64,000 bases of DNA. Source: Flavobacteriaceae bacterium. Its GTDB lineage: Bacteria > Bacteroidota > Bacteroidia > Flavobacteriales > Flavobacteriaceae. The position numbers and the translations under genes are program-made. Under the pieces are notes generated by a model. The model was not told where the DNA came from. It worked only from the letters and a program-made list of their open reading frames with translations, and searched no databases. How positions within the stretch are numbered: position 1 is the first letter of the stretch; every line of letters begins with the position of its first letter. Of this stretch, positions 1 to 37,827 are shown in pieces. The stretch covers positions 1 to 64,000 of the forward strand of contig JAOZLL010000002.1 in NCBI GenBank assembly GCA_029934835.1, in the 5' to 3' direction.

Positions 1-287
1 AATTAGGAATTAGTTTTGATGCTAGATTATTTGAAAAAGTAACTAAAGGATTAGGCCCTTCTATCTACAAAGCTGATGCTGAATCTGTATCTTGCACACA
101 AGAAAGTGAATTAGCAACTGTTAAGAAAAACTTCTTAATGAAAAAATTAGGCTGTGCAGATGGTCCAAAATTGGATGCAGCTATTGTAACAGTTTGTGAG
201 AAATTAGGAAAATCTAATCGTAATAAATACAGAGCTCAATTCTACTACTTATTAGTAAAAGAAATGGGTAAAGAATCTGTTTACTAA
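1..287 (+). CDS. DUF2853 family protein, 3' part
   Basis: The open frame enters from the left edge and runs for 94 codons to a TAA at 285-287, so the N-terminus lies outside the window. The visible part holds 'KGLGPSIY', 'LATVKKNFLMKKLG' and the ending 'NKYRAQFYYLLVKEMGKESVY', which I recognise as the DUF2853 family, small soluble proteins of about 110 residues common in marine Bacteroidota. The function is not known. It is followed at once by an intrinsic terminator and is convergent with yaaA. The family call rests on remembered conserved words and not on a search. Confidence 0.8.
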   Translation, partial: LGISFDARLFEKVTKGLGPSIYKADAESVSCTQESELATVKKNFLMKKLGCADGPKLDAAIVTVCEKLGKSNRNKYRAQFYYLLVKEMGKESVY

Positions 288-315
288 GAATTCAACCAAA
301 TTTTATTATAATAGG

Positions 316-346
316 AACCGCTTGCCTTTGGCTTGCGGTTTTTTTT
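316..346 (+). terminator. Intrinsic terminator after the DUF2853 gene
   Basis: AACCGC (316-321) pairs with GCGGTT (335-340). An inner GCC/GGC pair closes a three-base loop, with a TT/TT mismatch between the two stems, and a T run follows. The hairpin touches the stop of the convergent yaaA gene. Confidence 0.85.
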
Positions 347-1094
347 ATCGTGTAAAAACCCATTCAGTTGTAGTAGACAACTTTTCATCAAAACCATAAG
401 CATTCACGGCAAAGGTTTTAAGTTTTTCGACATTTTCTATTTGATTATCTATTGCAAAACGTGTCATCATTCCTCTGGCTTTTTTTGCATAAAAACTAAT
501 AACCTTGTATTGTCCATTTTTAAAATCTTTAAAAATTGGTGTAATTATTTTAGCCTTAAGATTTTTTGGTTTTATGATTTTGAAATATTCATTACTCGCT
601 AAGTTTACAACTACCTCATCAGTCTTTAGTTCATTGTTAATTTCATTGGTCACTTTTTCTCCCCAAAACTCATAGAGGTTTTTGTATTTGCTAACCTTCA
701 ATTTACTTCCCATTTCTAAGCGATAAGGTTTAATCATATCTAATGGTCTAAGTACACCATATTGGCCTGATAACATCCGTAACGTATTTTGCAAATAATC
801 AATTTTATTTTCAGAAATTGTATAAGCATCTAATCCCACATAAGCAGCTCCTTTAAATGCGTAAACTGCTTGTCTCAAATTGGTCACCTCTTTCCATTCT
901 TGATTTCTTTGCCAATTTAATTCAGCTAACTTATCAGAAATATGCATTAAATCAGCTAAGTTTTTTGGAGATTTTGAACCTAATACCACATTGAGCTTAT
1001 CTGCTTCTTTTGTGAATATGGTTTCACTTGTTCTTAGTGTTGGTACAAGTGATTCATAATCTAATGTCTTAGCTGGTGAAAGTAGAATTCTCAT
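345..1094 (-). CDS. yaaA: Peroxide stress protein YaaA (DUF328)
   Basis: The 249-residue protein matches the usual length of the YaaA family and begins with the family signature 'MRILLSPAKTLDYES'. Other family words are 'AVYAFKGAAYVGLDA', 'LRMLSGQYGVLRPLD' and 'FWGEKVT'. In E. coli YaaA lowers free intracellular iron during hydrogen peroxide stress, and the protein is cytosolic and binds DNA. The start is the ATG at 1092-1094, the only one that keeps the signature. The stop of the acetyltransferase-like gene lies 3 bases upstream, so the two are almost certainly co-transcribed. I see no missing region. The role here is inferred from the family. Confidence 0.9.
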   Translation of the reverse strand: MRILLSPAKTLDYESLVPTLRTSETIFTKEADKLNVVLGSKSPKNLADLMHISDKLAELNWQRNQEWKEVTNLRQAVYAFKGAAYVGLDAYTISENKIDYLQNTLRMLSGQYGVLRPLDMIKPYRLEMGSKLKVSKYKNLYEFWGEKVTNEINNELKTDEVVVNLASNEYFKIIKPKNLKAKIITPIFKDFKNGQYKVISFYAKKARGMMTRFAIDNQIENVEKLKTFAVNAYGFDEKLSTTTEWVFTR

Positions 1095-21926: not shown

Positions 21927-24767
21927 ATGAAAACTAAACAAACCTACATAGAAGTTTACGGTGCACGCGTTCATAATTTAAAAAACATTGATGTACAAAT
22001 TCCACATGAAAAACTAGTGGTTATCACGGGGTTAAGTGGTAGTGGAAAATCTTCATTAGCTTTTGATACTATATATGCCGAAGGTCAACGTCGTTATATC
22101 GAAACATTTTCTGCTTATGCAAGACAGTTTTTAGGTGGTCTAGAACGTCCAGATGTTGATAAAATTGATGGACTTTCTCCTGTAATTTCTATCGAACAAA
22201 AAACAACTAATAAAAGTCCACGTTCCACGGTTGGAACTATTACCGAAATATATGATTTTTTAAGGCTGCTTTACGCTCGTGTCGCCGATGCCTATTCATA
22301 TAATACAGGTGAAAAAATGGTTCAATATACCGATGAACAAATCCAAGAATTGATTTTTGAAACCTATCAAAATAAAAAAATCTATTTAATGGCTCCTGTG
22401 ATTAAATCACGAAAAGGACATTATAAAGAACTCTTTGAAAGTATTGCCAAACAAGGTTTTATACGTGTTTTTATTGATGGTGAATTAGTCGAAATCACCA
22501 AAGGAATGCGATTAGATCGCTATAAAACACACGACATTGCCATAGTAATTGATCGCTTAGAAATCAACAAATCCTCTAAAAAGCGTCTACAGGAAAGTAT
22601 CCTAACGGCACTCTATCACGGTGATAAAGTTATTCAAGTATTAGAATTAGCTAAACCTAAAACACCACGTTACTTTAGTAGTAATTTGATGTGTCCCACT
22701 ACAGGAATTGCCTACCCAAATCCTGAGCCCAATACTTTTTCTTTTAATTCTCCCAAAGGAGCTTGTCCAAAATGCAATGGCTTAAGCTATGTACAAGAAG
22801 TTAGCTTAAAAAAAATAATTCCTGATGCTAAAATCTCTATCAAAAAAGGAGGTTTGGCACCATTAGGTGAACATAAAAGTTCTTGGATTTTTAAACAATT
22901 AGAACTTATTGCAGATCGCTATGAATTTAAACTTACGGATCCCATAGATCGTATTCCAAAAAAAGCCATGGATATTATTTTACATGGAGGTAATGAAAAA
23001 TTTGAGGTAGTTTCAAAAACGATGGGAATTACACGTAATTATGCTATCGAATTTGAAGGTATCATCTCATTTATAGAAAACCAGTTTAAAAATAGTGATT
23101 CTTCCTCTATAAAACGTTGGGCAAAAACATTTATGGATGAAAATTCTTGTAGTGTTTGCAAGGGTAAGCGCTTAAAAAAAGAAGCTTTGCATTTTAAAAT
23201 TGATGGTCATAATATTTCTGATTTAGCTCAAATGGATACCCGAGAGTTAGCAGATTGGTTGAAAAATATTGAAAAAAAACTAACAAAAAAACAACAAATA
23301 ATTGCCCAAGAAATTATCAAAGAGCTAAGAACTCGAATTCAATTTCTATTAGATGTTGGTTTAAATTATTTAAGTATTGACCGTAGCTCAAAATCACTTT
23401 CTGGTGGTGAGGCACAACGTATTCGATTGGCTACTCAGATTGGCTCACAACTAGTTGGCGTTTTATATATTTTAGATGAACCTAGTATTGGTTTACACCA
23501 ACGTGATAACCAAAAATTGATTGATTCGTTACTAAAACTACGTGATGTAGGAAACTCTGTAATTGTTGTAGAACACGACAAAGACATGATTCAACACGCA
23601 GATTATGTATTAGATCTTGGTTCTGGAGCTGGAATTCATGGAGGAGAAATCGTCAGTGAAGGAAATTATAAAGAACTATTAACCCACAACACACTTACAT
23701 CAGATTATCTAACGGGTAGAAAAGAAATTTCCATTCCTAAAAAACGTCGAAAAGGAAATGGAAATAAAATGGTCTTAAAAGGTGCAACGGGTAATAATTT
23801 AAAAAATGTTAGTATTGAAATTCCATTAGGAAAATTAGTCTGTGTCACTGGTGTTTCAGGCAGTGGAAAATCAACACTTATTAATGAAACACTATATCCG
23901 ATATTAAACCAACATATATATAATGGTGTTAAAAAACCATTAGCTTATGAAAGCATAAAAGGGCTGGAACATATTGATAAAATAATTGATATTGACCAAT
24001 CACCTATTGGACGGACGCCACGATCTAATCCAGCAACTTACACAGGAGTTTTTACCGAAATTAGAGCAATTTTTGCTCAAACAGCTGAATCTAAGATTAG
24101 AGGTTACAAACCGGGACGATTTTCATTTAATGTAAAAGCGGGACGTTGTGAAACCTGTCAAGGTGCTGGAGTTCGTGTAATAGAAATGAATTTTTTACCT
24201 GATGTTCAGGTAGAGTGTGAAACATGTCAAGGCAAACGATTTAATCGAGAAACCTTAGAGATTCGTTTTAAAGGAAAATCAATATCTGATATTCTTAACA
24301 TGACCATTGAAGATGCTGTCCCATTTTTTGAAAACATTCCAAAAATATATCGAAAATTAAAGACCTTGCATGATGTTGGTTTAGATTATATCACTCTAGG
24401 ACAACCTTCAACCACTTTAAGTGGTGGCGAAGCACAACGTATTAAATTAGCTAGTGAATTGTCAAAAAAAGCTACTGGAAATACATTTTACATCTTAGAT
24501 GAACCTACAACAGGTTTGCATTTTGAGGATATAAAAGTTTTGATGGAAGTCATTCAAAAATTAGTAGACAAAGGAAATACAGTACTGATAATTGAGCATA
24601 ATATGGAAGTGATCAAACTAGCTGATTATATTATTGATATCGGTATGGAAGGCGGAAAAAATGGAGGTGAAATTATCTGTGTAGGAACTCCTGAACAAGT
24701 GAGTAAACATAAAGAGAGCTATACGGCTCAGTTTTTGAGAGAAGAATTGGCAAGCAATAGGCAATAG
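21927..24767 (+). CDS. uvrA: Excinuclease ABC subunit UvrA
   Basis: The 946-residue damage-recognition ATPase of nucleotide excision repair has two ABC modules with Walker A '[19 protein letters not shown]' near 34 and '[17 protein letters not shown]' near 645. Each has an ABC signature, '[13 protein letters not shown]' and '[13 protein letters not shown]'. The zinc modules 'CSVCKGKR' and 'CETCQGAG...CETCQGKR' are intact. The first zinc pair of the UvrB-binding region reads 'CPTTG' where E. coli has CPxC, while its partner 'CPKC' remains, so this site may not hold zinc. The last codons (Asn-Arg-Gln-stop) are formed by the GCAATAG repeat that follows. Confidence 0.97.
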
Positions 24768-24834: not shown

Positions 24835-25620
24835 GTGAAATTAAGGATGAAAGATTTAAAAGAAATATCAGAATTAGCGTATAAGATTCTAAATACAAAT
24901 ACTCCATATCTGAGTGGTAAGATATTTATTCAAAAATCATTTATCAATAATGGTACTTTGACGAAAGAGGATATTGAGTTTCAGTTAAGTATTATTGATA
25001 CATTTTACTCCACTCAAATGAATAAAAGATATTATGGAATTGAAGAAATTACTGAATCAATATTGAACATTTCAGATCAGAAAGTTGAGTTAGAGAAAGG
25101 ATTTATAAACTACTTAGATAACCCTGAACAAGAAAAATCAATTGGGAAGCTATTTACCGATAAATTTGGATATAATAAAAAAGGAAAAAAGAAAGGAGTA
25201 GCAACATCACTTATGTCAAAATATGCTTATTTCCTTACAAATTATCAATTTCCAATTTATGACACTATTGTTAGAGAAGTTTATCCCTTATTAAATAATA
25301 ATATAAAACTTCCAGAAGATAATTTTAATGAATATGTAAGAAAAATTAAAGAGTTATTAGAAAAATCTCAAATTCAAAACTTTGACAAACTGGATAATTT
25401 ACTTTGGCTCATAGGAAAAATAAGACGAGGAAACTATTCACTTTTATTAAGTAAGGAAAAGTACTTAGTTTTAACAGAAAAAATAGGTTTTGGAAATGAG
25501 AAAAGTATTGATGTAGATGAAAAAATAAAAACATATGTCAAAAATAACTTAGATCAACTAACTGATGACATCTTTGAAAAAGATCTGATAAGAATAATCA
25601 AATTTAGTCAAGATTTATAA
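24835..25620 (+). CDS. Protein of unknown function, 261 residues
   Basis: I do not recognise this protein with confidence. It is soluble and mainly helical, rich in Lys, Glu and Ile, with no signal peptide or membrane segment. The stretch 'SLMSKYAYFLTNYQFPIYDTI' near residue 127 resembles the 'K-F-xx-Fxx-P-xx-FPIYD' element I associate with HhH-glycosylase-like folds, which is only a hint. The start could be the GTG at 24835 or the ATG at 24847. It lies directly behind the heptamer array at the uvrA end, with another short array at its own 3' side. It is flanked by conserved genes, which fits a recent insertion. Confidence 0.65.
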   Translation: MKLRMKDLKEISELAYKILNTNTPYLSGKIFIQKSFINNGTLTKEDIEFQLSIIDTFYSTQMNKRYYGIEEITESILNISDQKVELEKGFINYLDNPEQEKSIGKLFTDKFGYNKKGKKKGVATSLMSKYAYFLTNYQFPIYDTIVREVYPLLNNNIKLPEDNFNEYVRKIKELLEKSQIQNFDKLDNLLWLIGKIRRGNYSLLLSKEKYLVLTEKIGFGNEKSIDVDEKIKTYVKNNLDQLTDDIFEKDLIRIIKFSQDL

Positions 25621-25722: not shown

Positions 25723-26433
25723 ATGACAAACGAAGACAGAAGAATACGTGAAAAATTAAAACAAAAAACTTGGAATGAAATAAAAACCAACGACTCATGG
25801 GCAATTTTTAAAATTATGTCAGAGTTTGTTGAAGGATATGAACGTTTGAGCAAAATAGGACCATGTGTAAGTATTTTTGGTTCTGCACGTACAAAACCAG
25901 ATCATGCTAACTATAAACTTTCAGAAGAAATTGCCTATAAATTAACTCAAAATGGTTTCGGTGTTGTAACTGGTGGTGGACCTGGAATCATGGAAGCAGG
26001 TAACAAAGGAGCTTTTCGTGGAAAAGGTGTTTCAGTAGGGCTAAATATTGAACTTCCTTTTGAACAACATGACAATCCTTACATTGATCCAGGGAAAAGT
26101 TTAGATTTTGATTATTTCTTTGTGAGAAAAGTAATGTTTATGAAATATTCACAAGGATTTGTAGTCATGCCTGGAGGTTTTGGAACTATGGATGAACTTT
26201 TTGAAGCCATCACTTTAATTCAAACCAAAAAAATTGGTCGTTTTCCAATCGTGTTGGTGAATCGTAAGTTTTGGAGTGGCTTATTAGATTGGATTAAACA
26301 AACCATATTAGAAGAAAATGGCAACATAAAAGAAGAAGATTTAAATCTATTTAGATTGGTTGATACTGCCGATGAAGCTGTCGAGCATTTTGTTAAGTTT
26401 TATGCTAAATATAATTTGGCTCCAAACTTCTAA
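25723..26433 (+). CDS. LOG family protein (TIGR00730 Rossmann fold)
   Basis: The 236-residue cytosolic protein has the two LOG signatures: 'GGGPGIMEAGNKGA' near residue 84 and 'MPGGFGTMDELFEA' near residue 148. Many family members are cytokinin riboside 5'-monophosphate phosphoribohydrolases that release a base from a nucleoside monophosphate. The N-terminal 40 residues ('NDEDRRIREKL'-like, charged) belong to the longer bacterial subgroup. The start is the ATG at 25723. It is followed after 17 bases by the M1-like gene. The natural substrate in this organism is unknown. Confidence 0.88.
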   Translation: MTNEDRRIREKLKQKTWNEIKTNDSWAIFKIMSEFVEGYERLSKIGPCVSIFGSARTKPDHANYKLSEEIAYKLTQNGFGVVTGGGPGIMEAGNKGAFRGKGVSVGLNIELPFEQHDNPYIDPGKSLDFDYFFVRKVMFMKYSQGFVVMPGGFGTMDELFEAITLIQTKKIGRFPIVLVNRKFWSGLLDWIKQTILEENGNIKEEDLNLFRLVDTADEAVEHFVKFYAKYNLAPNF

Positions 26434-26450
26434 ACAACTAGATAAAATAA

Positions 26451-29261
26451 ATGCAAAAGGTGCAATACATAGTTTTGGTTTTGGCAAGTTATCTATTTGC
26501 CATGCCTACCTATGCCCAAAATAATCAAATAAAAATGCAGGTTCTATTAGATATCGAATCTAATAGTGTAAAAATACAGCAGCAAATCACTTATTTTAAC
26601 AAATCAAATGATACCTTAAAATCCATTTTTTTACATGATTGGGCTAATGCTTTTTCGAGTAAAAACTCTGTTCTTGGGAAACGTTTTGTAGAAAATTATA
26701 GTAAAAAATTCTTTTTCACTAAAGATAAAAATCGTGGTTTTACCAAAATAAATAATATTACAGTAAACTATCAAACCACAGAGTGGAAACGTAGTAATGA
26801 AACTGCTGATTATATTGAAATTCCATTTAAAAAACCACTTCAACCAAAAGACTCTGTTTCTATTAATTTAAACTACTTAGTTAAAATTCCACATGCTAAA
26901 TTTACTGATTATGGATTTGATAAAGGCACTTATAACCTACGCTACTGGTACATAACACCCGTTGTTTATACTAATAAATGGGAGTTATTACATCATTTAG
27001 ATATGGATGATCTTTATCAAGATCCTACGGATTATACTGTAAAAATCACAGTTCCAAATACATACCAAATAGCAAGTAATTTACTTGTAAAAAAAGAAAG
27101 TGAAACACAATACAAATTACAAGGTAAAGACTTGATGGATTTTGAATTGCACCTATCTCCTTCAAATGATTTTGAACGATTTCAAACGGAGAAGGTTCTT
27201 GTTTCCACTAACTTAAATACAATACAGATAGGATCAAATGTCAAGTTAGATATTCTCAATAGACAACTACTATTTCTAAAAGAAAATCTTGGAGCATATC
27301 CTCATAAAAAAATCTTTGTAAATAATACCATCTACACTAAAAACCCTTTATATGGTTTTAATCAATTACCAAAGATTCTTCGCCCGTTTTCAGATACTTT
27401 TGAATGGGATATGAGGATGTTTAAAACGCTTACAAATTATTATATCAATAATAGTTTACTAATACATACTAGAGAAAACACCTGGTTACAAGATGGTATT
27501 CAATCTTATATGATGTCACTTTATGTTAAAGAGTTTTATCCTGAAATAAAACTTATGGGTGGTATTTCTAAAATTTGGGGTATTCGCTCCTATTATCTTT
27601 CTGAGTTAGAATTCAATAACCGCTATTCTTTAACCTATAGATATGCAGCACGTAGAGGTAATGACCAACCTCTAAATATGCGTACAGATTCACTAACCAA
27701 CTTTAACCGTAAAATCCTTAATAAATACAAAAGTGGCATGGGACTACTTTATTTGGATGATTTTCTTGGTGACAATATTGTACAAGATGGAATTAAACAA
27801 TACTTCGCAAACAATACATTAAAAAATGACTCAATAGATATTTTTAAAAAATTCATTTCAGCTGAAACAAACAAAGATTTAACCTGGTTTTTTAATGATT
27901 ATATTAAAACTGATAAAAAGGTAGATTATACTATAACAAAAACAAGTAAAAAAGGTGATTCTATTCAAATAACAATAAAAAATAATAAGAGCTTTTCACC
28001 TCCTATCTCTCTCTATAGTTTAAACAATAATACTGTCCAATCTAAAAAATGGCTTATTGGTATCGATTCAACCAAAACTATCATTATTCCAAAAGGAACA
28101 TCTAAAAATTGGATGTTAAACTATGAAAAGAAAATACCTGAGATAAACTTACAAAACAATTGGGGAAACACAAGCTGGTCACCCATAAAACGTCCACTAA
28201 AAATTAAATGGTTAAGCGATGCTGAGGATCCATATCACAATCAATTATTTATAGAACCAAACATTATTTATAATTATTACGATGGGTTCATTCTATCTAC
28301 TGCCTTTACAAACAAAAGTTTAGTAAAAAAAGAATTTGAATATCGAATTATTCCTGCTTATGGATTTAAAAGTCAATCTCTTACAGGTTCTTTCAAAGGA
28401 GTATATTGGAAATATCCCGAAAATAAAAAAATTAGTAGTTATCGTTTTGGCATAACGGGTTCTTATTTTCATTACCAACCTAATTTAGCCTATAAAAAAA
28501 TAACTCCTTATGCACAATTATTCTTTAAACGAAAAAACTTTCGTTCAGTAAAAGGAAGTTCGATCAGTACTAATTTTACAATGGTTGATAGAGAAATAAA
28601 TCCTCTTGACAACACACAACTTGAAGCTAATAAGTATAATATTTTTAACTTGAGCTATGTGTATAGTAATCCTGAGATAATTAACAATTTTTTGTTTTAT
28701 TCAAATATAGAAATCGGTACAAATTTCAGTAAACTATCTACAGATATACGTTTCAGAAAACTAACTAATAGTAATAGGTTATTTGGTGCACGACTTTTTG
28801 TTGGTGTATTTTTACATAATAATACCAACTCAGATTATTTTAGCTATGGAATAAACCGGCCCAATGATTATCTTTTTAGATACAATTATTATGGACGTTC
28901 GGAAACTAATGGGATTTTCAGTCAACAATTTATCATGAATGATGGTGGATTTAAATCACAAATGCCCGTTAGTTTTGCAAACCAATGGATTACGTCATTT
29001 AACACCAGTATTGGACTTTGGCGTTGGTTTGAAATCTATAATGATGTAGGACTAGCTAAAAACAGTAACCAACCAGCATATTTTGTACATGATAAAGGAG
29101 TTCGACTCAATTTTGTAAATAATATTTTAGAAGTTTATTTTCCAATGCATTCAAATAATGGCTGGGAAATATCACAACCACACTATGAAAAGCAGATACG
29201 ATTTGTATTTACCTCTGATTTTAAGAGAATTATTCGTTTCTTAAAAAGAGGGTTTATGTAA
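26451..29261 (+). CDS. M1-peptidase-like protein without active site, with barrel-like C-terminus
   Basis: The 936-residue exported protein has signal peptide 'MQKVQYIVLVLASYLFAMPTYAQ'. Residues 25-250 resemble the N-terminal beta domain of M1 aminopeptidases. Residues 280-470 follow the M1 catalytic fold, ending in 'NTWLQDGIQSYMMSLYVKEF', the counterpart of the family's 'WLxEGFxxY'. The zinc motif HExxH is absent (the aligned stretch is 'LTNYYINNSLL'), and no GxMEN motif is visible ('YGFNQLPKI'). From about residue 600 the sequence alternates polar and aromatic residues in short strands and ends 'IRFVFTSDFKRIIRFLKRGFM', which looks like an outer-membrane beta-barrel. A non-catalytic surface or outer-membrane role is inferred. 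Confidence 0.75.
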   Translation: MQKVQYIVLVLASYLFAMPTYAQNNQIKMQVLLDIESNSVKIQQQITYFNKSNDTLKSIFLHDWANAFSSKNSVLGKRFVENYSKKFFFTKDKNRGFTKINNITVNYQTTEWKRSNETADYIEIPFKKPLQPKDSVSINLNYLVKIPHAKFTDYGFDKGTYNLRYWYITPVVYTNKWELLHHLDMDDLYQDPTDYTVKITVPNTYQIASNLLVKKESETQYKLQGKDLMDFELHLSPSNDFERFQTEKVLVSTNLNTIQIGSNVKLDILNRQLLFLKENLGAYPHKKIFVNNTIYTKNPLYGFNQLPKILRPFSDTFEWDMRMFKTLTNYYINNSLLIHTRENTWLQDGIQSYMMSLYVKEFYPEIKLMGGISKIWGIRSYYLSELEFNNRYSLTYRYAARRGNDQPLNMRTDSLTNFNRKILNKYKSGMGLLYLDDFLGDNIVQDGIKQYFANNTLKNDSIDIFKKFISAETNKDLTWFFNDYIKTDKKVDYTITKTSKKGDSIQITIKNNKSFSPPISLYSLNNNTVQSKKWLIGIDSTKTIIIPKGTSKNWMLNYEKKIPEINLQNNWGNTSWSPIKRPLKIKWLSDAEDPYHNQLFIEPNIIYNYYDGFILSTAFTNKSLVKKEFEYRIIPAYGFKSQSLTGSFKGVYWKYPENKKISSYRFGITGSYFHYQPNLAYKKITPYAQLFFKRKNFRSVKGSSISTNFTMVDREINPLDNTQLEANKYNIFNLSYVYSNPEIINNFLFYSNIEIGTNFSKLSTDIRFRKLTNSNRLFGARLFVGVFLHNNTNSDYFSYGINRPNDYLFRYNYYGRSETNGIFSQQFIMNDGGFKSQMPVSFANQWITSFNTSIGLWRWFEIYNDVGLAKNSNQPAYFVHDKGVRLNFVNNILEVYFPMHSNNGWEISQPHYEKQIRFVFTSDFKRIIRFLKRGFM

Positions 29262-30907: not shown

Positions 30908-32038
30908 TTAATAATCATAAGAATCTCCAATATTAAAACCAAGAGAAAAACGCAATGTGTTTTCTAATGGATTATTAATATCCGAAGCATTAAACAAATA
31001 AGATATATCAATATTAGTAGCTTTAAACTTAAATCCGGCTCCTGCTGTGAAAAATTTTCGAGCTCCTTTGGTGTCACTTTCGTGAAAATAGCCCAATCGT
31101 AAAGCAAATGCCTCATTATATAAGTACTCTGCTCCTACTGCCCATGTAAACTCTTTCATTTCTTCACTAAATCCTCCTGGAGCATCACCAAAAGAGGAAA
31201 AAATACCTTCAGCAAAACCTATATCATTTTCAGAATAATCTTCTTGTGGTGTTGGTACTAATAATTTAGTAGATTCTAATGTTATTCCCACTTTATTATA
31301 ATCATCAAAAATAAAATCAAATCCAGCACCTAATTTCATATTAGTTGGAATAAAACTTTCATCACCACCATCTACATAACTTACTTTTGGACCAATATTA
31401 GACAAGTTAATACCTCCTCTAAAAACTCCATTAAAATCTCCATAATTTGCCTCGATTGATTCATAGTATGCTGAGATATCAATACCAAATGTATTTACGG
31501 CTTGAAGTTCTGAATCCTGAATTTTAAGAGCAAAATCAGAACGAATATAACGTAGAGTAACTCCCATACTGATTGCTTCGCTTAGTTTTAAAGCATAAGT
31601 TCCATCAATTGAAAACTCATTTGGTTTTTCAACACCCATTTCTTCTCCAAGATCATTGGTTAAATTGATTTCTCCTAACGTAAAATATTTAATACTAGTT
31701 GCCCACGCACTTCGTTCGTTTAATTTACCTGTTGCTGAGATTCCTCCTAAATAAACATCATTTACCAATTCACGCATCCAAGGTGTAAAATTAATCCCAA
31801 CAGAAAATTGAGAATCACTGAATGCAATCTTTGATGGATTGTGATGTTGTGAATTAAAATCTGGACTTGTTGCAACACCAACATCTCCCATTCCTCCTGC
31901 TCTTGCATCTGGAGTTATTAATAGGAAAGGAGCCGCTGTTGTTATTGCATTAATATCATCAACATTAAACTCTTGAGCTATCATCTTCTGTGATAAAACT
32001 AATAATGCAACAAAAACTACTATTATTTTATTTCGCAT
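30908..32038 (-). CDS. porV: Type IX secretion outer-membrane protein PorV
   Basis: The 376-residue protein has signal peptide 'MRNKIIVVFVALLVLSQKMIAQ' and then the PorV opening 'TAAPFLLITPDARAGGMGDVGVAT' followed by a FadL-like beta-barrel. It ends with 'NTLRFSLGFNIGDSYDY'. PorV (also LptO) acts with PorU at the cell surface: it shuttles type IX cargo from the translocon SprA to the sortase PorU. Gene order porU-porV-cdd fits flavobacteria. The gap to porU is 89 bases. High confidence by N-terminal motif and context. Confidence 0.93.
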   Translation of the reverse strand: MRNKIIVVFVALLVLSQKMIAQEFNVDDINAITTAAPFLLITPDARAGGMGDVGVATSPDFNSQHHNPSKIAFSDSQFSVGINFTPWMRELVNDVYLGGISATGKLNERSAWATSIKYFTLGEINLTNDLGEEMGVEKPNEFSIDGTYALKLSEAISMGVTLRYIRSDFALKIQDSELQAVNTFGIDISAYYESIEANYGDFNGVFRGGINLSNIGPKVSYVDGGDESFIPTNMKLGAGFDFIFDDYNKVGITLESTKLLVPTPQEDYSENDIGFAEGIFSSFGDAPGGFSEEMKEFTWAVGAEYLYNEAFALRLGYFHESDTKGARKFFTAGAGFKFKATNIDISYLFNASDINNPLENTLRFSLGFNIGDSYDY

Positions 32039-32127
32039 AAATCTTTATTTTATTCTGTATTATTATATACAGATTATTTAGGTTTTGATATTTATTTATT
32101 GCGTCAAGGCATCAAATATCTGTAAAA

Positions 32128-35100
32128 TTATTGAAGTATGACTAATTTTTCATATTTTTCTGCCTTTAAGTCAGATAATGTGGCTGTTACTGTTAATTTA
32201 TAAATATAGACTCCTTTACCAATTTTTTGTCCAAAATCATCTAATCCATCCCAAAGAATATCTCTTGAAAGGCTTCCTGTATTTTGCACCTGTTGGTTTA
32301 TTGTTTTTACTAATTTACCTGAAACAGTAAATATTTGTATTTGAACTTCTAAAGGTTCATTAGGCTTATTATGATTAAACCAAAATTCGGTATAATTCAC
32401 AAATGGATTTGGATAATTGAGTACATGCTCTAAAACCAACTCACTATCATCTAATACTACAAAATTTAACGTTGCTTCTGCTGGATTATTGTAGGTATCA
32501 TAAGCTTTTAATTGAATGGTATGCTGACCTACTTCTAGGTTTCTAAGTCTATACTCAAGACTTCCCTTTGTAAAATCATTTAATTCAGTTGTATAATAAT
32601 CATTCAGAATAATAGAGTTTTGTTGGTCATCATCTAACACAGCCACAATATCATGATCAACAGAAGTTAACGAGGTATTAATTCCATTTTCATCTTCAAA
32701 AAATGCTAAGAATAAGGGAGATTGATTAGTCGTTCCTCCATCAATAAAAGATTCATCATTCATATACAATCGTAGATTAGGGCCTTGATTATCTTCTGGC
32801 GCCTCTTCATTAATTCCTCCTACCACTACATCTAAATTATAACCACCTTTATCAATTTCATCATTATCAGCATAGAAACTTAATTTACCAAAGCCATAAG
32901 CAATACGAATATCAAGTGGCGCTACAAAATCAAAACTAAATTGTCCATTAACCACTGATGCGCGACCTCTAAAAATTTTACTTTCTTGAACATCAAAAGT
33001 CATGATAGCTGCGTTACCATCATTATTTAGTGTTTCTTTATCCTGAGGTTTATCAAAAACCGTTAAGGATACTTCTCCATTAAAACCTGTATCAGTTTCT
33101 CCTGTATTATTGGTAACAATTCCATCAAAATATACATGTGATAAAGCACTAATAGTATCTAGAGATTGTGTTATTGATACCCCATTCATATGTGTTAATC
33201 TAACATCAGGTTTTGGTACGGCAAGTTTCATAGCTGGATCTCCAAAAGAGAAAACAAAAAAACGTTGCGAATCACCTACAACTCCTTGTGAATTCTTAAC
33301 TAATCGTAGATTTTCTGCAATACTACGTGGGATATTATCAAATTCTAATAAGGCAGGTACAATTTTTTTATTGATCGTATTACCATAACTTGTATAAATT
33401 TTTCTTGCTGTAGCAATATGATAAGCTGCTCCTCCATGCGTATTCCTAATGGTTAATTCGCCTGCTGTGTTTGGCCTTAATGGATTATCAAATCGAGCAA
33501 ACTCACATGATATTACAATAAATAATGGGAGTTTATTACTATTATTCCAAGCTTCAATTTCGTGTGTCTCTAAAAGTCGTTCTAAAGCTAGGCCATCTTC
33601 TCCTCCATGCCCAAAATAATCAGCCAACAAAACACCTCTCTCAATAGCATTGTTTAATGCCGTATTCACATCAGGATACCGAGATCCTCCAGAAGTTATA
33701 ACTTGTGGAAAAGCATCTGCATATATTTTCTTAATATTAAATAATGGCTTGTTTTGTTTTATATTATCCGATATAAACTCCATATTGCTTTGCAAGATAT
33801 ATTCATATCCATTAGAATCATCAATATCATCTGCCATCATCACTATTTGATTTCGCCAATCTCCCAATGAAACTTCTGCATAATAGTTTAAAATTTTTGC
33901 AGTTACCTCACTTGCTTCTGTACTAGTAGAAATAGGAATCCTAGCAATAGCAACATCTTGAGTCTGGAATCCAATCCCATCTAAATCTCCTTCAGAAGGA
34001 TTACTAACAATTGCATAATAATCATCCGTTACAAATGATTTTGTCATATCATAGCTCTTATAAGATTCAAATGCTGGTACTACACCACTATCATACCGAA
34101 TCCCTTTAAAATCAAAACTGGCATCACCATATAGTAATACATATTGTAGCTGTGGTTGCGAATTATCATATAAAAACTTAACAAAATCACGAATGGCAGT
34201 TATATCCGAACCTCCAGATCCAAATTCATTATATATTTGATATAAGGGAACAACCTTGACATTCAAATTAGAATTTTCTCGATGGTATTGAGCCAAAACT
34301 TCTGCTTCACTTACTAAAAAATCTTTTGTAATTATAACGTAGTCTACATTTTGTAAAGCATGTAAATTTTGATTTTGAACTCTTGGATTTGTAATTTGGT
34401 TTGGAGTAAAAAAATTCTGTTCGTTTAACACTATATATTCGTGTAATTCACCGCCATTTGCCGTAAAAATAAAATTTGAATCACTAGATTGATTTTGAAT
34501 ATTTCTAGGGTTTATCAAATCAGTAACATCCCATATTTGAAAAATATTTGGTGTATTTTGTACTTTATAAGAAACAGGATTAGTAGTAGATAGCACATCA
34601 AAATTCCTAAAAGAAAACTGATTTCCATCAGCTAAAAGAGTTTTTTTACCAATTATCTCAATATAATCTAAAAAACATTGAGCTGCTGGATCAGCATTAT
34701 TGTTGTATGATAATGTTAAACCTATACTATCTGAGTTTAAAAAAACCTCATTGGTTGCAATAGCAGTATCTGCTAGTTTATTATCGTTTACAGAAGTAAA
34801 AGATAAAGTTGTTAAACTTTGCCCATTTAGGATTTGATTTAAACTAGTTATTTGTAATGAAACAGCAGCAGCTCTGGTAGTAATCTTAACAGGAAAAGTA
34901 ACATCAAGGTTTGTAAATTGCAGTTGAATACTTCTTTCGTTTTCTATATCAAAGGCTTCTCCTAACCACTGTTGTCCTGCCTGATATAAATTTGTTTGCT
35001 CAATTTCATGTACTATAAAATCATCAAAATTTGTTATTTCAAGTTGTGGTGTTTCTGTTATGAGAGGCATACTAGAAATCCTTTTCCCTAATTGATTTCC

Positions 35101-35943
35101 AACATGAACAAAATAATAAGCTTTATTTGTATAAATATTCTTTTGATGTTTAACTGAAGCTAGTGTATTGTTATGCACCCAATTATCAGGACCTTTTGCA
35201 TAGAATAGCAAATAATCATTTGAATCAAAACTCTCATCGTCTTCTCCAGCCACATAAATTGCTGTTTCTTGTAAATCGTCCAATCTGAAATCACCTATTT
35301 TATAGGGTAATAATTGACCTCCATTACCATATATACTAATATTCTTGGGATTAATATTATTTGTACTTATTCCTAAATTATTTAAAAATGTGCGGTCTAA
35401 CTTATAAACTCCAGTTGTATCAACGCTAAATTTAAACCATTCTCCTGAGGCTAATACTGAATTTGGAGTATATGTTCTTGATTGGTTTCTAGAAGAATCA
35501 TTTAGAAGTTGATACTGTATTTCAAATGATATTATTTTTTTTATTTGATGTCCTTGTTTTACCAATGGATCTATTTCAAAAAACACATGAGATTTATTAC
35601 GAGTAGAAATTACTTGCATATTTGAATTCACTACTTCTAAAACATTCTCAATTTTAATATCATATAATGCTTCTATAGGAATTGATTCATATACAATATT
35701 TTTGACTTCAAAAGTTGTAACCTTCGAATTGTTAGGAACTTGCCATTTCTCCATAAAAGCAGGAATCATCCTATCAAAATTTGCACCATTTTTTGCCACT
35801 AAAGGCATTTCCCATGTTTTATTAGCATCAACATGAACTATTTGTTTCGATTGCCAATCTAACTCGATTTTTTTAATCAATAATTCTTGGGCATTACCCG
35901 AAAAAATGTAAAAAATTGCAGCTAAAAGTAAAAGTTGTCTCAT
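32128..35943 (-). CDS. porU: Type IX secretion sortase PorU (C25-type)
   Basis: The 1271-residue surface protein has a signal peptide at 1-18, a long N-terminal beta region and a gingipain-type (C25) caspase-like domain from about 530 to 860. Catalytic His779 is in 'DYFGHGGEDG' and Cys813 in 'VISCEFARFDNP'. The C-terminal region ends in a flgD/FnIII-like and sorting-type module ('LNYPNPFVNYTEFWF' and 'KGVYIYKLTV'). PorU cleaves the C-terminal signals of type IX cargo and attaches the proteins to the surface. It lies immediately upstream of porV and is divergent from gldJ, the arrangement seen in Flavobacterium. No damage seen. Confidence 0.95.
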   Translation of the reverse strand: MRQLLLLAAIFYIFSGNAQELLIKKIELDWQSKQIVHVDANKTWEMPLVAKNGANFDRMIPAFMEKWQVPNNSKVTTFEVKNIVYESIPIEALYDIKIENVLEVVNSNMQVISTRNKSHVFFEIDPLVKQGHQIKKIISFEIQYQLLNDSSRNQSRTYTPNSVLASGEWFKFSVDTTGVYKLDRTFLNNLGISTNNINPKNISIYGNGGQLLPYKIGDFRLDDLQETAIYVAGEDDESFDSNDYLLFYAKGPDNWVHNNTLASVKHQKNIYTNKAYYFVHVGNQLGKRISSMPLITETPQLEITNFDDFIVHEIEQTNLYQAGQQWLGEAFDIENERSIQLQFTNLDVTFPVKITTRAAAVSLQITSLNQILNGQSLTTLSFTSVNDNKLADTAIATNEVFLNSDSIGLTLSYNNNADPAAQCFLDYIEIIGKKTLLADGNQFSFRNFDVLSTTNPVSYKVQNTPNIFQIWDVTDLINPRNIQNQSSDSNFIFTANGGELHEYIVLNEQNFFTPNQITNPRVQNQNLHALQNVDYVIITKDFLVSEAEVLAQYHRENSNLNVKVVPLYQIYNEFGSGGSDITAIRDFVKFLYDNSQPQLQYVLLYGDASFDFKGIRYDSGVVPAFESYKSYDMTKSFVTDDYYAIVSNPSEGDLDGIGFQTQDVAIARIPISTSTEASEVTAKILNYYAEVSLGDWRNQIVMMADDIDDSNGYEYILQSNMEFISDNIKQNKPLFNIKKIYADAFPQVITSGGSRYPDVNTALNNAIERGVLLADYFGHGGEDGLALERLLETHEIEAWNNSNKLPLFIVISCEFARFDNPLRPNTAGELTIRNTHGGAAYHIATARKIYTSYGNTINKKIVPALLEFDNIPRSIAENLRLVKNSQGVVGDSQRFFVFSFGDPAMKLAVPKPDVRLTHMNGVSITQSLDTISALSHVYFDGIVTNNTGETDTGFNGEVSLTVFDKPQDKETLNNDGNAAIMTFDVQESKIFRGRASVVNGQFSFDFVAPLDIRIAYGFGKLSFYADNDEIDKGGYNLDVVVGGINEEAPEDNQGPNLRLYMNDESFIDGGTTNQSPLFLAFFEDENGINTSLTSVDHDIVAVLDDDQQNSIILNDYYTTELNDFTKGSLEYRLRNLEVGQHTIQLKAYDTYNNPAEATLNFVVLDDSELVLEHVLNYPNPFVNYTEFWFNHNKPNEPLEVQIQIFTVSGKLVKTINQQVQNTGSLSRDILWDGLDDFGQKIGKGVYIYKLTVTATLSDLKAEKYEKLVILQ

Positions 35944-36089
35944 AATAATCTAGACAATAACGTTTGATTATCTTGAATAGTATAAAAAGAAATTAAAAAA
36001 AGTATTATAAGAACAAGTATAATAAAACACTTTTACAAGCGTTAAACATTAACAAATAAATGACACGATTATTAAAATTTATAAAATTC

Positions 36090-36118
36090 TTGTATAAAAT
36101 AAGAAATATTGTAAATTG
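36090..36118 (+). promoter_or_regulatory. Probable gldJ promoter
   Basis: TTG (36090-36092), 19 bases, then TAAATTG (36112-36118), one base short of TAnnTTTG. It lies 27 bases before the ATG in the 201-base gap shared with porU. Confidence 0.4.
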
Positions 36119-36144
36119 CGTGGCTCAATATATTTATTCATAGT

Positions 36145-37827
36145 ATGATGAAATTATTCTTAAAATTGACTGTTATTGCAGTAACCTTGGCAGGTTTAAT
36201 TAGTTGTGGTGGTAAATCCAACAACGCTTCACTTACAGGTTGGGGCGCAAAAGACAAAGCTGCCGGTGGATTCTCTACCCCTAAACAATACAAAGGTCAA
36301 AAAACTCCCCCAGGAATGGTGTTAGTAGAAGGCGGTACTTTCACTATGGGTCATGTCCAAGATGACGTTATGTTTGATTGGAACACGACTCCACAAAAAC
36401 AACAAGTTCGTTCTTTTTATATGGATGAAACAGAAGTAACTAACCAAGAGTATATTTTCTACTTAGAATGGTTAGAGAAAGTTTTCCCTCCTCATAATGA
36501 GAATTACAAGTACATTTATCAATCTGCATTACCTGATACTTTAGTATGGAGAAATCGTTTAGGTTTTAATGAATCATTAACCGAAACCTATTTAAGACAT
36601 CCATCTTATTCAGATTATCCTGTTGTTGGAATTAGTTGGGTACAAGCCACAGATTATTGCAAATGGCGTACAGATAGATTGAATGAAAAAATCTTAATGG
36701 ATAAAGGGATTATTAAAAATCTCTTTTCATTGGATTCACTTCGTGTTGAAGGTAAAGATCATTTTGTCACTGATACCTATTTGTTAAATCCTAATTATAT
36801 GTTTGATGGTGATTCTACTATCTACAACAAAGGATTACCTACAAAACAAGTACGTAAAAGAGGAGATCCAAGACCTCAGCGAGGTGCATTTTCTGGAAGA
36901 CACGTAAAAACTTCAGATGGTATTTTAATGCCGAAATTTCGTCTACCAACAGAAACGGAATGGGAATTTGCTGCAAAAGCACTTTCAGAAAATAGAGAAT
37001 ATAACGATTTAAGAGGACGTAAAAAATTCCCATGGAATGGACGTTATACTCGAAATAAATCTAACAAGTATAGAGGTGATCAATTAGCAAACTTTAAATT
37101 AGGAAAAGGAGATTATAGCGGCATTGCAGGTTGGAGTAATGATGGTGCAGATATTACTATTTCAGTAAGATCGTACCCACCAAACGCAAATGGTTTATTT
37201 GATATGGCAGGTAATGTTGCGGAATGGGTAGCTGATGTTTATAGACCTATTATTGATACTGAAGCAAATGACTTTAACTACTATCGTGGTAACACATTTA
37301 GTAAACCAAAAATTGATAGAGAAGGTAAAGTTGTCATAGCAGACTATACTACTATAGATTATGATACTTTAGATAATGGTAAGATTATTCCTGCAGATCA
37401 ACCAGGTAATATTATATACATCCCTATCACTAAAAGAGATGCATTTATGCGTAATAATTACGAAAAATCATATAATGTAGATTATAGAGATGGTGATTTG
37501 GCTTCAACACAAGAATATGAAGAAGATGAGGATGAACTAGAAACACAACCTCGTATGTATAACCATCCTATTATCCCTAAAGAATTAGGTGAAGGTGGAA
37601 TGAGAAGGCAAATTTATGATAACAAAACCCGTAGAACTCTTGTAAGTGATAAAACTAGAGTTTACAAAGGTGGTTCTTGGATGGACCGTGAATATTGGCT
37701 AGATCCAGCTCAAAGACGTTATCTCCCTCAGTATTCTGCAACCAGTTTTATTGGCTTTAGATGTGCTATGGACCGTTTAGGAGCTATGAAAGAAGATAAC
37801 AGAAAGCCTTATCCAAGTAAAAAATAG
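36145..37827 (+). CDS. gldJ: Gliding motility lipoprotein GldJ
   Basis: The 560-residue lipoprotein has a signal peptide with lipobox Cys21 ('LAGLISCGG'). It has a formylglycine-generating-enzyme-like (SUMF1) fold, with 'GMVLVEGGTFTMGHVQDD', 'DETEVTNQEYI', 'FRLPTETEWEFAAKA', 'NGLFDMAGNVAEWVADVY' and 'VYKGGSWMDREYW...GFRCAMD'. GldJ is needed for the gliding motor and stabilises GldK in the type IX core; it is not an enzyme. Two Met codons are adjacent at the start, and either could serve. It is divergent from porU, and a strong terminator follows. Confidence 0.95.
   Translation: MMKLFLKLTVIAVTLAGLISCGGKSNNASLTGWGAKDKAAGGFSTPKQYKGQKTPPGMVLVEGGTFTMGHVQDDVMFDWNTTPQKQQVRSFYMDETEVTNQEYIFYLEWLEKVFPPHNENYKYIYQSALPDTLVWRNRLGFNESLTETYLRHPSYSDYPVVGISWVQATDYCKWRTDRLNEKILMDKGIIKNLFSLDSLRVEGKDHFVTDTYLLNPNYMFDGDSTIYNKGLPTKQVRKRGDPRPQRGAFSGRHVKTSDGILMPKFRLPTETEWEFAAKALSENREYNDLRGRKKFPWNGRYTRNKSNKYRGDQLANFKLGKGDYSGIAGWSNDGADITISVRSYPPNANGLFDMAGNVAEWVADVYRPIIDTEANDFNYYRGNTFSKPKIDREGKVVIADYTTIDYDTLDNGKIIPADQPGNIIYIPITKRDAFMRNNYEKSYNVDYRDGDLASTQEYEEDEDELETQPRMYNHPIIPKELGEGGMRRQIYDNKTRRTLVSDKTRVYKGGSWMDREYWLDPAQRRYLPQYSATSFIGFRCAMDRLGAMKEDNRKPYPSKK

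What the first reader, a model, noticed from the sequence alone, without database searches (positions are those of the whole stretch)
26451..29261. M1-peptidase-like protein with lost zinc site and an added barrel
Fold markers of M1 aminopeptidases are present but HExxH is absent and no GxMEN is seen. The last third looks like an outer-membrane beta-barrel. A catalytically dead peptidase domain tied to a barrel suggests a receptor or assembly role.
Basis: partly seen in the sequence, partly recalled or inferred. Interest (0 to 1): 0.55.

Follow-up and report, generated by a model that had tools for sequence, protein, structure and literature searches.

The report
Dead peptidase fused to assembly-type barrel
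This gene makes an outer-membrane protein whose front part is a peptidase that has lost its zinc site and whose back part folds like the barrels that insert proteins into outer membranes, a pairing I found no report of; it is carried by nearly all sampled relatives of this bacterium and looks like a conserved envelope factor.

Summary
The ORF at 26451-29261 (936 aa) has the M1 aminopeptidase fold (predicted structure; best 50 structural matches all M1) but neither HExxH nor GxMEN, and ends in a barrel. Two things change the reading. First, the barrel is not generic: predicted alone it has 16 strands, and all 50 best matches by each of two aligners are Omp85-superfamily chains (TamA, BamA, Sam50, FhaC), although no POTRA domain and no Pfam Omp85 match are found. 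Second, the fusion is old: 66 of 70 homologues fetched from across the class have an intact HExxH with the same barrel, and a second M1 subfamily carries explicit Omp85 motifs (18 of 18). The zinc site was lost apparently once, within Flavobacteriales, and the dead form has been kept (35 of 37 genomes of the family). In the intact clade an LpxH-like gene follows directly in 17 of 20 loci, which hints at envelope biogenesis. Best explanation: a POTRA-less Omp85-like outer-membrane protein whose periplasmic pseudopeptidase binds clients instead of cutting them. Anatomy is well supported; function is inferred. The ten published Omp85 subfamilies I read contain no M1 fusion.

The parts
26451..29261 (+). 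CDS of 936 aa: signal peptide, zinc-less M1-fold domains, Omp85-like barrel
26451..26516 (+). Signal peptide, residues 1-22; residue 23 is Gln in 81 of 81 orthologues, as the Bacteroidetes Q-rule predicts for an exported protein
   Evidence: sequence; Q-rule from PMC10653852; cleavage site inferred
26520..27215 (+). N-terminal beta domain of the M1 fold (residues 24-255)
   Evidence: boundaries approximate
27216..27920 (+). Pseudo-catalytic helical domain (residues 256-490)
   Evidence: boundaries approximate
27354..27371 (+). GFNQLP (residues 302-307) at the GGMEYP/GxMEN position of the intact relatives
27423..27494 (+). Former zinc site: K325 (H1), T326 (catalytic E), N329 (H2), D348 (third ligand E); same spacing as in the intact relatives
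27921..28130 (+). Small beta domain (residues 491-560) between the helical domain and the barrel, within the stretch aligned with M1 structures; no POTRA-like helices
28239..29210 (+). 16-strand Omp85-like barrel (residues 597-920)
28821..28985 (+). Loop between strands 11 and 12 (residues 791-845), the position of Omp85 loop L6; the most conserved stretch of the protein (28 of 55 columns at 90% or more), with invariant D806 and R816
29028..29060 (+). Strand 13 with the YxDxG motif (D865), as in the Omp85 strand-13 motif (motif recalled)
25723..26433 (+). LOG-like gene (name recalled) directly upstream, conserved neighbour in 74 of 80 named loci by blastp to the window gene (75 of 80 by clustering)
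21927..24767 (+). uvrA-like gene (name recalled), same strand upstream in 66 of 80 named loci

Best explanation
It is an outer-membrane protein made of an Omp85-like 16-strand barrel whose periplasmic partner domain is not a POTRA array but an M1 peptidase fold that has lost its zinc site. Shown here by computation: the M1 fold, the loss of all catalytic elements, the Omp85-like fold of the barrel, the age of the fusion, and long retention of the dead form. Inferred: the signal peptide sends it through Sec; the barrel sits in the outer membrane with its N-terminal domain in the periplasm, as shown for the patatin domain of PlpD; the pseudopeptidase cleft binds a peptide or unfolded stretch of a client without cutting it and hands it to, or gates, the barrel; the conserved strand 11-12 loop folds into the barrel as a plug or gate, like loop L6. 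The client is probably another envelope component (outer-membrane protein, lipoprotein or lipid).
For: M1 fold. Zinc site lost in 81 of 81 named-set rows and 42 of 42 zinc-less rows of related genomes. Barrel alone: all 50 best rows by Foldseek and all 50 by VIA-align are Omp85-superfamily entries (e.g. Deinococcus BamA 8xnb_A Z 17.7, rmsd 4.8, 278 aligned; F. johnsoniae BamA 9n2d_A Z 16.4, rmsd 6.2, 293 aligned). Strand count 16, long conserved loop between strands 11 and 12 with invariant Arg (13 of 13 dead, 22 of 22 intact rows) and strand-13 Asp (13 of 13 dead, 19 of 22 intact). Homologous intact relatives: barrel profile match dead/intact 100%, E 1.7e-66; 66 of 70 class loci with HExxH. 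Second M1 subfamily with RGY-like and FxDxG motifs in 18 of 18, one with a Pfam Omp85 match of 37.1 bits, cut-off 24, and barrel-start similarity to the intact relatives at 96%. Envelope link: LpxH-like gene directly downstream in 17 of 20 loci of the intact clade, gaps mostly -4 to 32 nt. Retention: 35 of 37 genomes of the family. Periplasmic topology of an Omp85 N-terminal enzyme domain: PlpD, PMC11116518.
Against: No POTRA. No Pfam Omp85 match for the window barrel or for most relatives (1 of 7 pieces, 0 of 10); the loop has no RGF/Y. Foldseek TM-scores for the barrel are moderate (0.36-0.52 by query length) and VIA rmsd is 3.8-7.1 A. Profile comparison with BamA and TamL of relatives found nothing, though BamA against TamL also failed (0.9%), so that test was blind. 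Much of the strand 11-12 loop has pLDDT under 50. The LpxH link is in the intact clade only and the LpxH-like protein is below the curated cut-off (77 of 134 bits). No M1-fold subunit was reported in the purified F. johnsoniae BAM complex. No experimental datum on this family was found.
Confidence: 0.6

Rival explanations
1. PlpD-like: the Omp85-like barrel is only a membrane scaffold for the periplasmic domain, which acts in lipid or envelope homeostasis and moves no client through or into the membrane.
For: PlpD is an Omp85 protein with a periplasmic enzyme domain and a plpD mutant with altered membrane lipids (abstract and section title); the intact clade is next to an LpxH-like gene.
Against: The most conserved stretch is a barrel loop, not the M1 part, which suggests that the barrel itself works; the dead M1 domain would have no chemistry to do.
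Confidence: 0.25
2. Receptor or uptake channel: the pseudopeptidase binds peptides and the barrel imports them.
For: M1 clefts bind peptide N-termini (general knowledge, not from a call).
Against: The best barrel matches are Omp85, not porins or TonB-dependent transporters; conserved neighbours look like house-keeping genes, not uptake genes.
Confidence: 0.1
3. Still a peptidase, with another metal site or without metal.
For: K325/D348 replace two zinc ligands in 72 of 81 named-set rows, so the site is conserved in its new form within the family.
Against: Both His ligands and the catalytic Glu are gone in 81 of 81 or nearly so, with the GxMEN-type motif; early-branching zinc-less lineages have other residues there, so no replacement site is shared.
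Confidence: 0.04
4. Decaying gene without function.
For: Loss of the active site.
Against: Full-length frames in all 80 named loci (920-969 aa), 35 of 37 family genomes, many invariant columns.
Confidence: 0.01

Closest known systems
M1 aminopeptidases (ERAP1, IRAP, PSA, tricorn factor F3, two-domain M1 of Deinococcus)
   Same: Fold of residues 22 to about 560-629; order of domains; position of the former zinc helix
   Different: No HExxH, third-ligand Glu replaced in most rows, no GxMEN; C-terminal outer-membrane barrel
Patatin-Omp85 protein PlpD (PMC11116518)
   Same: N-terminal enzyme-type domain before a 16-strand Omp85-type barrel
   Different: PlpD has a patatin domain and one POTRA; here an M1 fold, dead, and no POTRA found
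BamA, TamA/TamL, Sam50, FhaC (Omp85/TpsB)
   Same: Barrel fold, strand number, long loop between strands 11 and 12, strand-13 Asp
   Different: No POTRA, no RGF/Y, no Pfam Omp85 match
'Metallo' Omp85 subfamily of Heinz and Lithgow 2014 (PMC4104836)
   Same: Omp85 barrel with a non-POTRA metal-enzyme type domain
   Different: Theirs is PF00149, called Calcineurin-like phosphoesterase in Pfam, not M1
F. johnsoniae BAM complex (BamA, D, G, H, M, P; PMC12611786)
   Same: Outer-membrane assembly in the Flavobacteriaceae
   Different: No M1-fold subunit is listed

Membership tests
M1 peptidase family | M1 fold | tested here: met
   all 50 best rows are M1 peptidases
M1 peptidase family | HExxH-(18)-E zinc site | tested here: not met
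M1 peptidase family | GxMEN-type exopeptidase motif | tested here: not met
M1 peptidase family | Pfam PF01433 above curated cut-off | tested here: not met
   25.9 bits against 27.7
Omp85 superfamily | 16-strand Omp85-type barrel (the defining feature according to PMC4104836) | tested here: met
   predicted model only; moderate TM-scores
Omp85 superfamily | RGF/Y motif in loop L6 | tested here: not met
   loop at the right place with an invariant Arg but no RGF/Y; such a motif is present in the sister M1 subfamily, 18 of 18
Omp85 superfamily | xDxG in strand 13 (recalled) | tested here: met
   YNDVG in the window
Omp85 superfamily | Pfam PF01103 match | tested here: not met
   window protein and its C-terminal piece: none
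Omp85 superfamily | at least one POTRA domain (as stated in PMC11116518) | tested here: not met
   no helix of 4 or more residues between residues 485 and 923 in the model; the published subfamilies include ones without POTRA
Omp85 superfamily | assembly or translocation activity | not testable with these tools
   needs experiment
F. johnsoniae-type BAM subunit | co-purifies with BamA | not testable with these tools
   no M1-fold protein among the listed subunits

The most novel reading that the evidence does not exclude
A third Omp85-type machine of the Bacteroidota beside BamA and TamL, in which an M1 peptidase shell replaces the POTRA domains. In the catalytically intact clade it would trim or inspect client N-termini (where the pyroglutamate of the Q-rule blocks aminopeptidases) in step with lipid A synthesis; in Flavobacteriales the peptidase died once and became a pure client-recognition module.
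Probability: 0.3. Interest if true: 0.85.

Novelty: new variant of a known kind. Interest (0 to 1): 0.62.

Why it matters
Omp85 proteins insert or move proteins across outer membranes, and their N-terminal domains help decide what they work on. A widespread subfamily with a peptidase fold in place of POTRA, intact in most of the class and dead in one order, would add an architecture to a superfamily described with ten, and offers a natural experiment: the same barrel with and without a live peptidase. It also gives a concrete candidate for further envelope-biogenesis factors in a phylum whose BAM complex was only recently solved.

Tried and rejected
Literature: (full-text searches of the open-licence PMC library, no preprints) found no M1-Omp85 fusion; I read listings only for most of these, one search returned nothing and one search listed 20 of 38 papers, so this is weak evidence of absence. 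Membership of the BAM complex was my first idea; the listed subunits include no M1-fold protein. Neighbourhood to T9SS genes (porV, porU, gldJ 1.6-7 kb downstream) looked telling but is shared by 1 of 80 named loci. T9SS co-occurrence is uninformative: SprA_N is in 114 of 119 class genomes. HHalign against BamA and TamL was blind (BamA against TamL 0.9%). Pfam Omp85 on barrel pieces: 1 of 7 and 0 of 10; the one hit is the last 233 aa of L049, and a longer piece of the same protein does not hit; whole proteins of the same kind do not hit either. PDB sequence searches with profiles gave only chance-level hits. A Lys-Asp salt bridge as a general replacement of zinc: holds in 72 of 81 named-set rows but in 21 of 42 related-genome rows, so not general. 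Distances in the model could not be measured, as no coordinates are given out.

Rows left out: the first tree used 74 rows, picked from the homologues and the 70 class rows (short M1s, duplicates, close rows and about half of the class rows left out); the careful tree used 42 of these 74, leaving out long or redundant rows. Columns from the GxMEN region to the third ligand were cut out of both trees.

Full report
WHAT IS THERE. The ORF at 26451-29261 encodes 936 aa. Residues 1-22 look like a signal peptide; residue 23 is Gln in 81 of 81 orthologues, which fits the Q-rule of the Bacteroidetes (PMC10653852, abstract and passages). Pfam Peptidase_M1 matches residues 342-484 with E 9e-6 but below the curated cut-off.

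FOLD. With 50 aligned sequences AlphaFold2 gives pLDDT 85.6 and pTM 0.83. For the whole model all 50 best rows are M1 peptidases in both Foldseek and VIA-align; ERAP1 6mgq_C has Z 22.4, rmsd 3.4 A over 466 residues of model 22..629. The barrel folded alone (residues 560-936) has pLDDT 79.7, pTM 0.77 and 16 strands. All 50 best rows are then Omp85-superfamily entries: TamA, BamA, Sam50 in SAM complexes, FhaC, CdiB, Toc75 (chain identities in the SAM and TOC entries are recalled). Examples: TamA 8us3 E 1.2e-6; 8xnb_A Z 17.7; F. johnsoniae BamA 9n2d_A Z 16.4. Against this: TM-scores are moderate (0.36-0.52 by query length), rmsd 3.8-7.1 A, and sequence-level Omp85 evidence for the window protein itself is absent.

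OMP85-LIKE DETAILS. Strands 11 and 12 are joined by a 55-residue loop, the place of Omp85 loop L6. It is the most conserved stretch of the protein: 28 of 55 columns at 90% or more, against 42 of 235 in the M1 helical domain. D806 and R816 are invariant in 13 of 13 zinc-less and 22 of 22 intact barrels compared; D865 on strand 13 is kept in 13 of 13 and 19 of 22 (13 of 50 and 22 of 66 rows were sampled for that alignment). There is no RGF/Y and no POTRA: no helix of four or more residues lies between 485 and 923.

A SISTER SUBFAMILY BRIDGES THE GAP. Another group of M1 proteins (about 1050-1140 aa, intact HExxH) has C-terminal barrels with an (L/V/I)RG(Y/F) and an FxDxG motif in 18 of 18 fetched, and by eye similar motifs in the three fetched earlier. 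The last 233 aa of one (L049) match Pfam Omp85 with 37.1 bits, cut-off 24, and the same stretch rings in a whole-genome search. Other members do not reach Pfam. The barrel start of that group matches the intact relatives of the present protein with 96% probability, E 4.7e-9 over 104 columns; against the zinc-less rows themselves it gave 18%. So M1-Omp85 fusion is supported by sequence in the sister group and by fold in this one.

THE ZINC SITE. Against intact relatives the spacing is unchanged, so ligands can be placed: H1 is K in 78 of 81, the catalytic Glu is T/A/I/V/S in most, H2 is variable (H itself in 14 of 81), the third ligand E is D in 72 of 81 and E in 5; GGMEYP has become xxNQLP-like. 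The K/D pair is not shared by early-branching zinc-less lineages.

HISTORY. In the class-wide search 116 of 119 genomes have some M1 match (short M1s included). Of 70 loci fetched from it, 66 carry HExxH; the four without are the window itself, two of its family and one of its order. Intact barrel-bearing forms also occur in other families of the order (L039, L041-L043). On trees with the site columns removed, intact and zinc-less rows are split by one branch: 1 change in a 74-row quick tree and in a 42-row careful tree, support 100/99, 100% of 200 bootstrap trees. The simplest reading is one loss within Flavobacteriales; the trees are unrooted, so the direction rests on the rarity of rebuilding a zinc site. 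Within the family 35 of 37 genomes have a full-length orthologue (G022 none, G029 only a short M1). No match at all was found in G044, G045, G051 and G057, small genomes of the order.

NEIGHBOURS. In 80 named loci the LOG-like gene lies upstream on the same strand in 74 and uvrA in 66; a 2-oxo acid dehydrogenase-like gene (name recalled) lies downstream in 67. In the window the downstream side differs (fabH-like, cdd, porV, porU, gldJ; names recalled), shared by 1 of 80. In the intact clade an LpxH-like gene follows on the same strand in 17 of 20 loci by blastp (16 by clustering), with gaps mostly of -4 to 32 nt; it is best described by the UDP-2,3-diacylglucosamine diphosphatase models but scores below their cut-offs. 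A TlpA-like thioredoxin protein lies upstream in 13 of 20. LpxH-like proteins occur in 58 of 60 relatives; where both genes lie on one contig of a zinc-less genome they are far apart, e.g. G020, G027, G031.

HOW IT MAY WORK. In Omp85 proteins the domain before the barrel is periplasmic; for PlpD this was shown although the patatin domain had been thought to be secreted (PMC11116518, abstract and passages). I infer the same here. A peptidase shell that binds chain ends without cutting is a plausible client-recognition module, and the strictly kept barrel loop suggests the barrel is more than an anchor. Likely clients are envelope components. This is inference; I found no assay of this family.

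WHAT IS KNOWN. Heinz and Lithgow list ten Omp85/TpsB subfamilies; the 'Metallo' one has PF00149 (PMC4104836, abstract, section 10 and passages); none named there is an M1 fusion. The F. johnsoniae BAM paper lists BamA, D, G, H, M, P (PMC12611786, abstract, section 5 part 1, section 6, passages). A second Bacteroidota BAM paper (PMC12578637) has no hit for peptidase terms in the held text, and the T9SS translocon paper (PMC10994853) none that bears on this protein (passages). Searches found no report of an M1-Omp85 fusion; the library holds no preprints and few subscription papers.

VERDICT. Observation confirmed; interpretation partly supported. An M1-derived pseudopeptidase, not an M1 peptidase; an Omp85-like barrel by fold, not by Pfam. 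New variant of a known kind.

Noticed in passing
L044 (G003) and L046 (G001): Two genomes of the window's own genus carry, besides the dead gene, an HEVGH-bearing M1+barrel-type gene (L046 is cut by the contig end); L044 groups with rows from outside the order in the trees, so it may be a transferred copy.
   Followed up: partly
L258-L275, e.g. L274:10219-10983: LpxH-like gene directly behind the intact M1-Omp85-like gene in 17 of 20 loci, some with overlapping ends.
   Followed up: partly
window 30908-37824: porV-, porU- and gldJ-like genes (names recalled) near the finding; the closeness is not conserved (1 of 80 loci).
   Followed up: yes
window 24835-25620: 261-aa ORF with a GTG start between the uvrA- and LOG-like genes; nature unknown.
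   Followed up: no
L048, L049, L053, L240-L257: M1 subfamily with intact HExxH and explicit Omp85 motifs, hardly recognised by Pfam Omp85; deserves a family model of its own.
   Followed up: partly
L084:8693-9979 and 13 other named loci, directly upstream of the zinc-less gene: A protein of about 429 aa with a signal-peptide-like start sits between the LOG-like gene and the zinc-less gene in 14 of 80 loci; it looks like an exported endonuclease/phosphatase-type protein (recalled).
   Followed up: no
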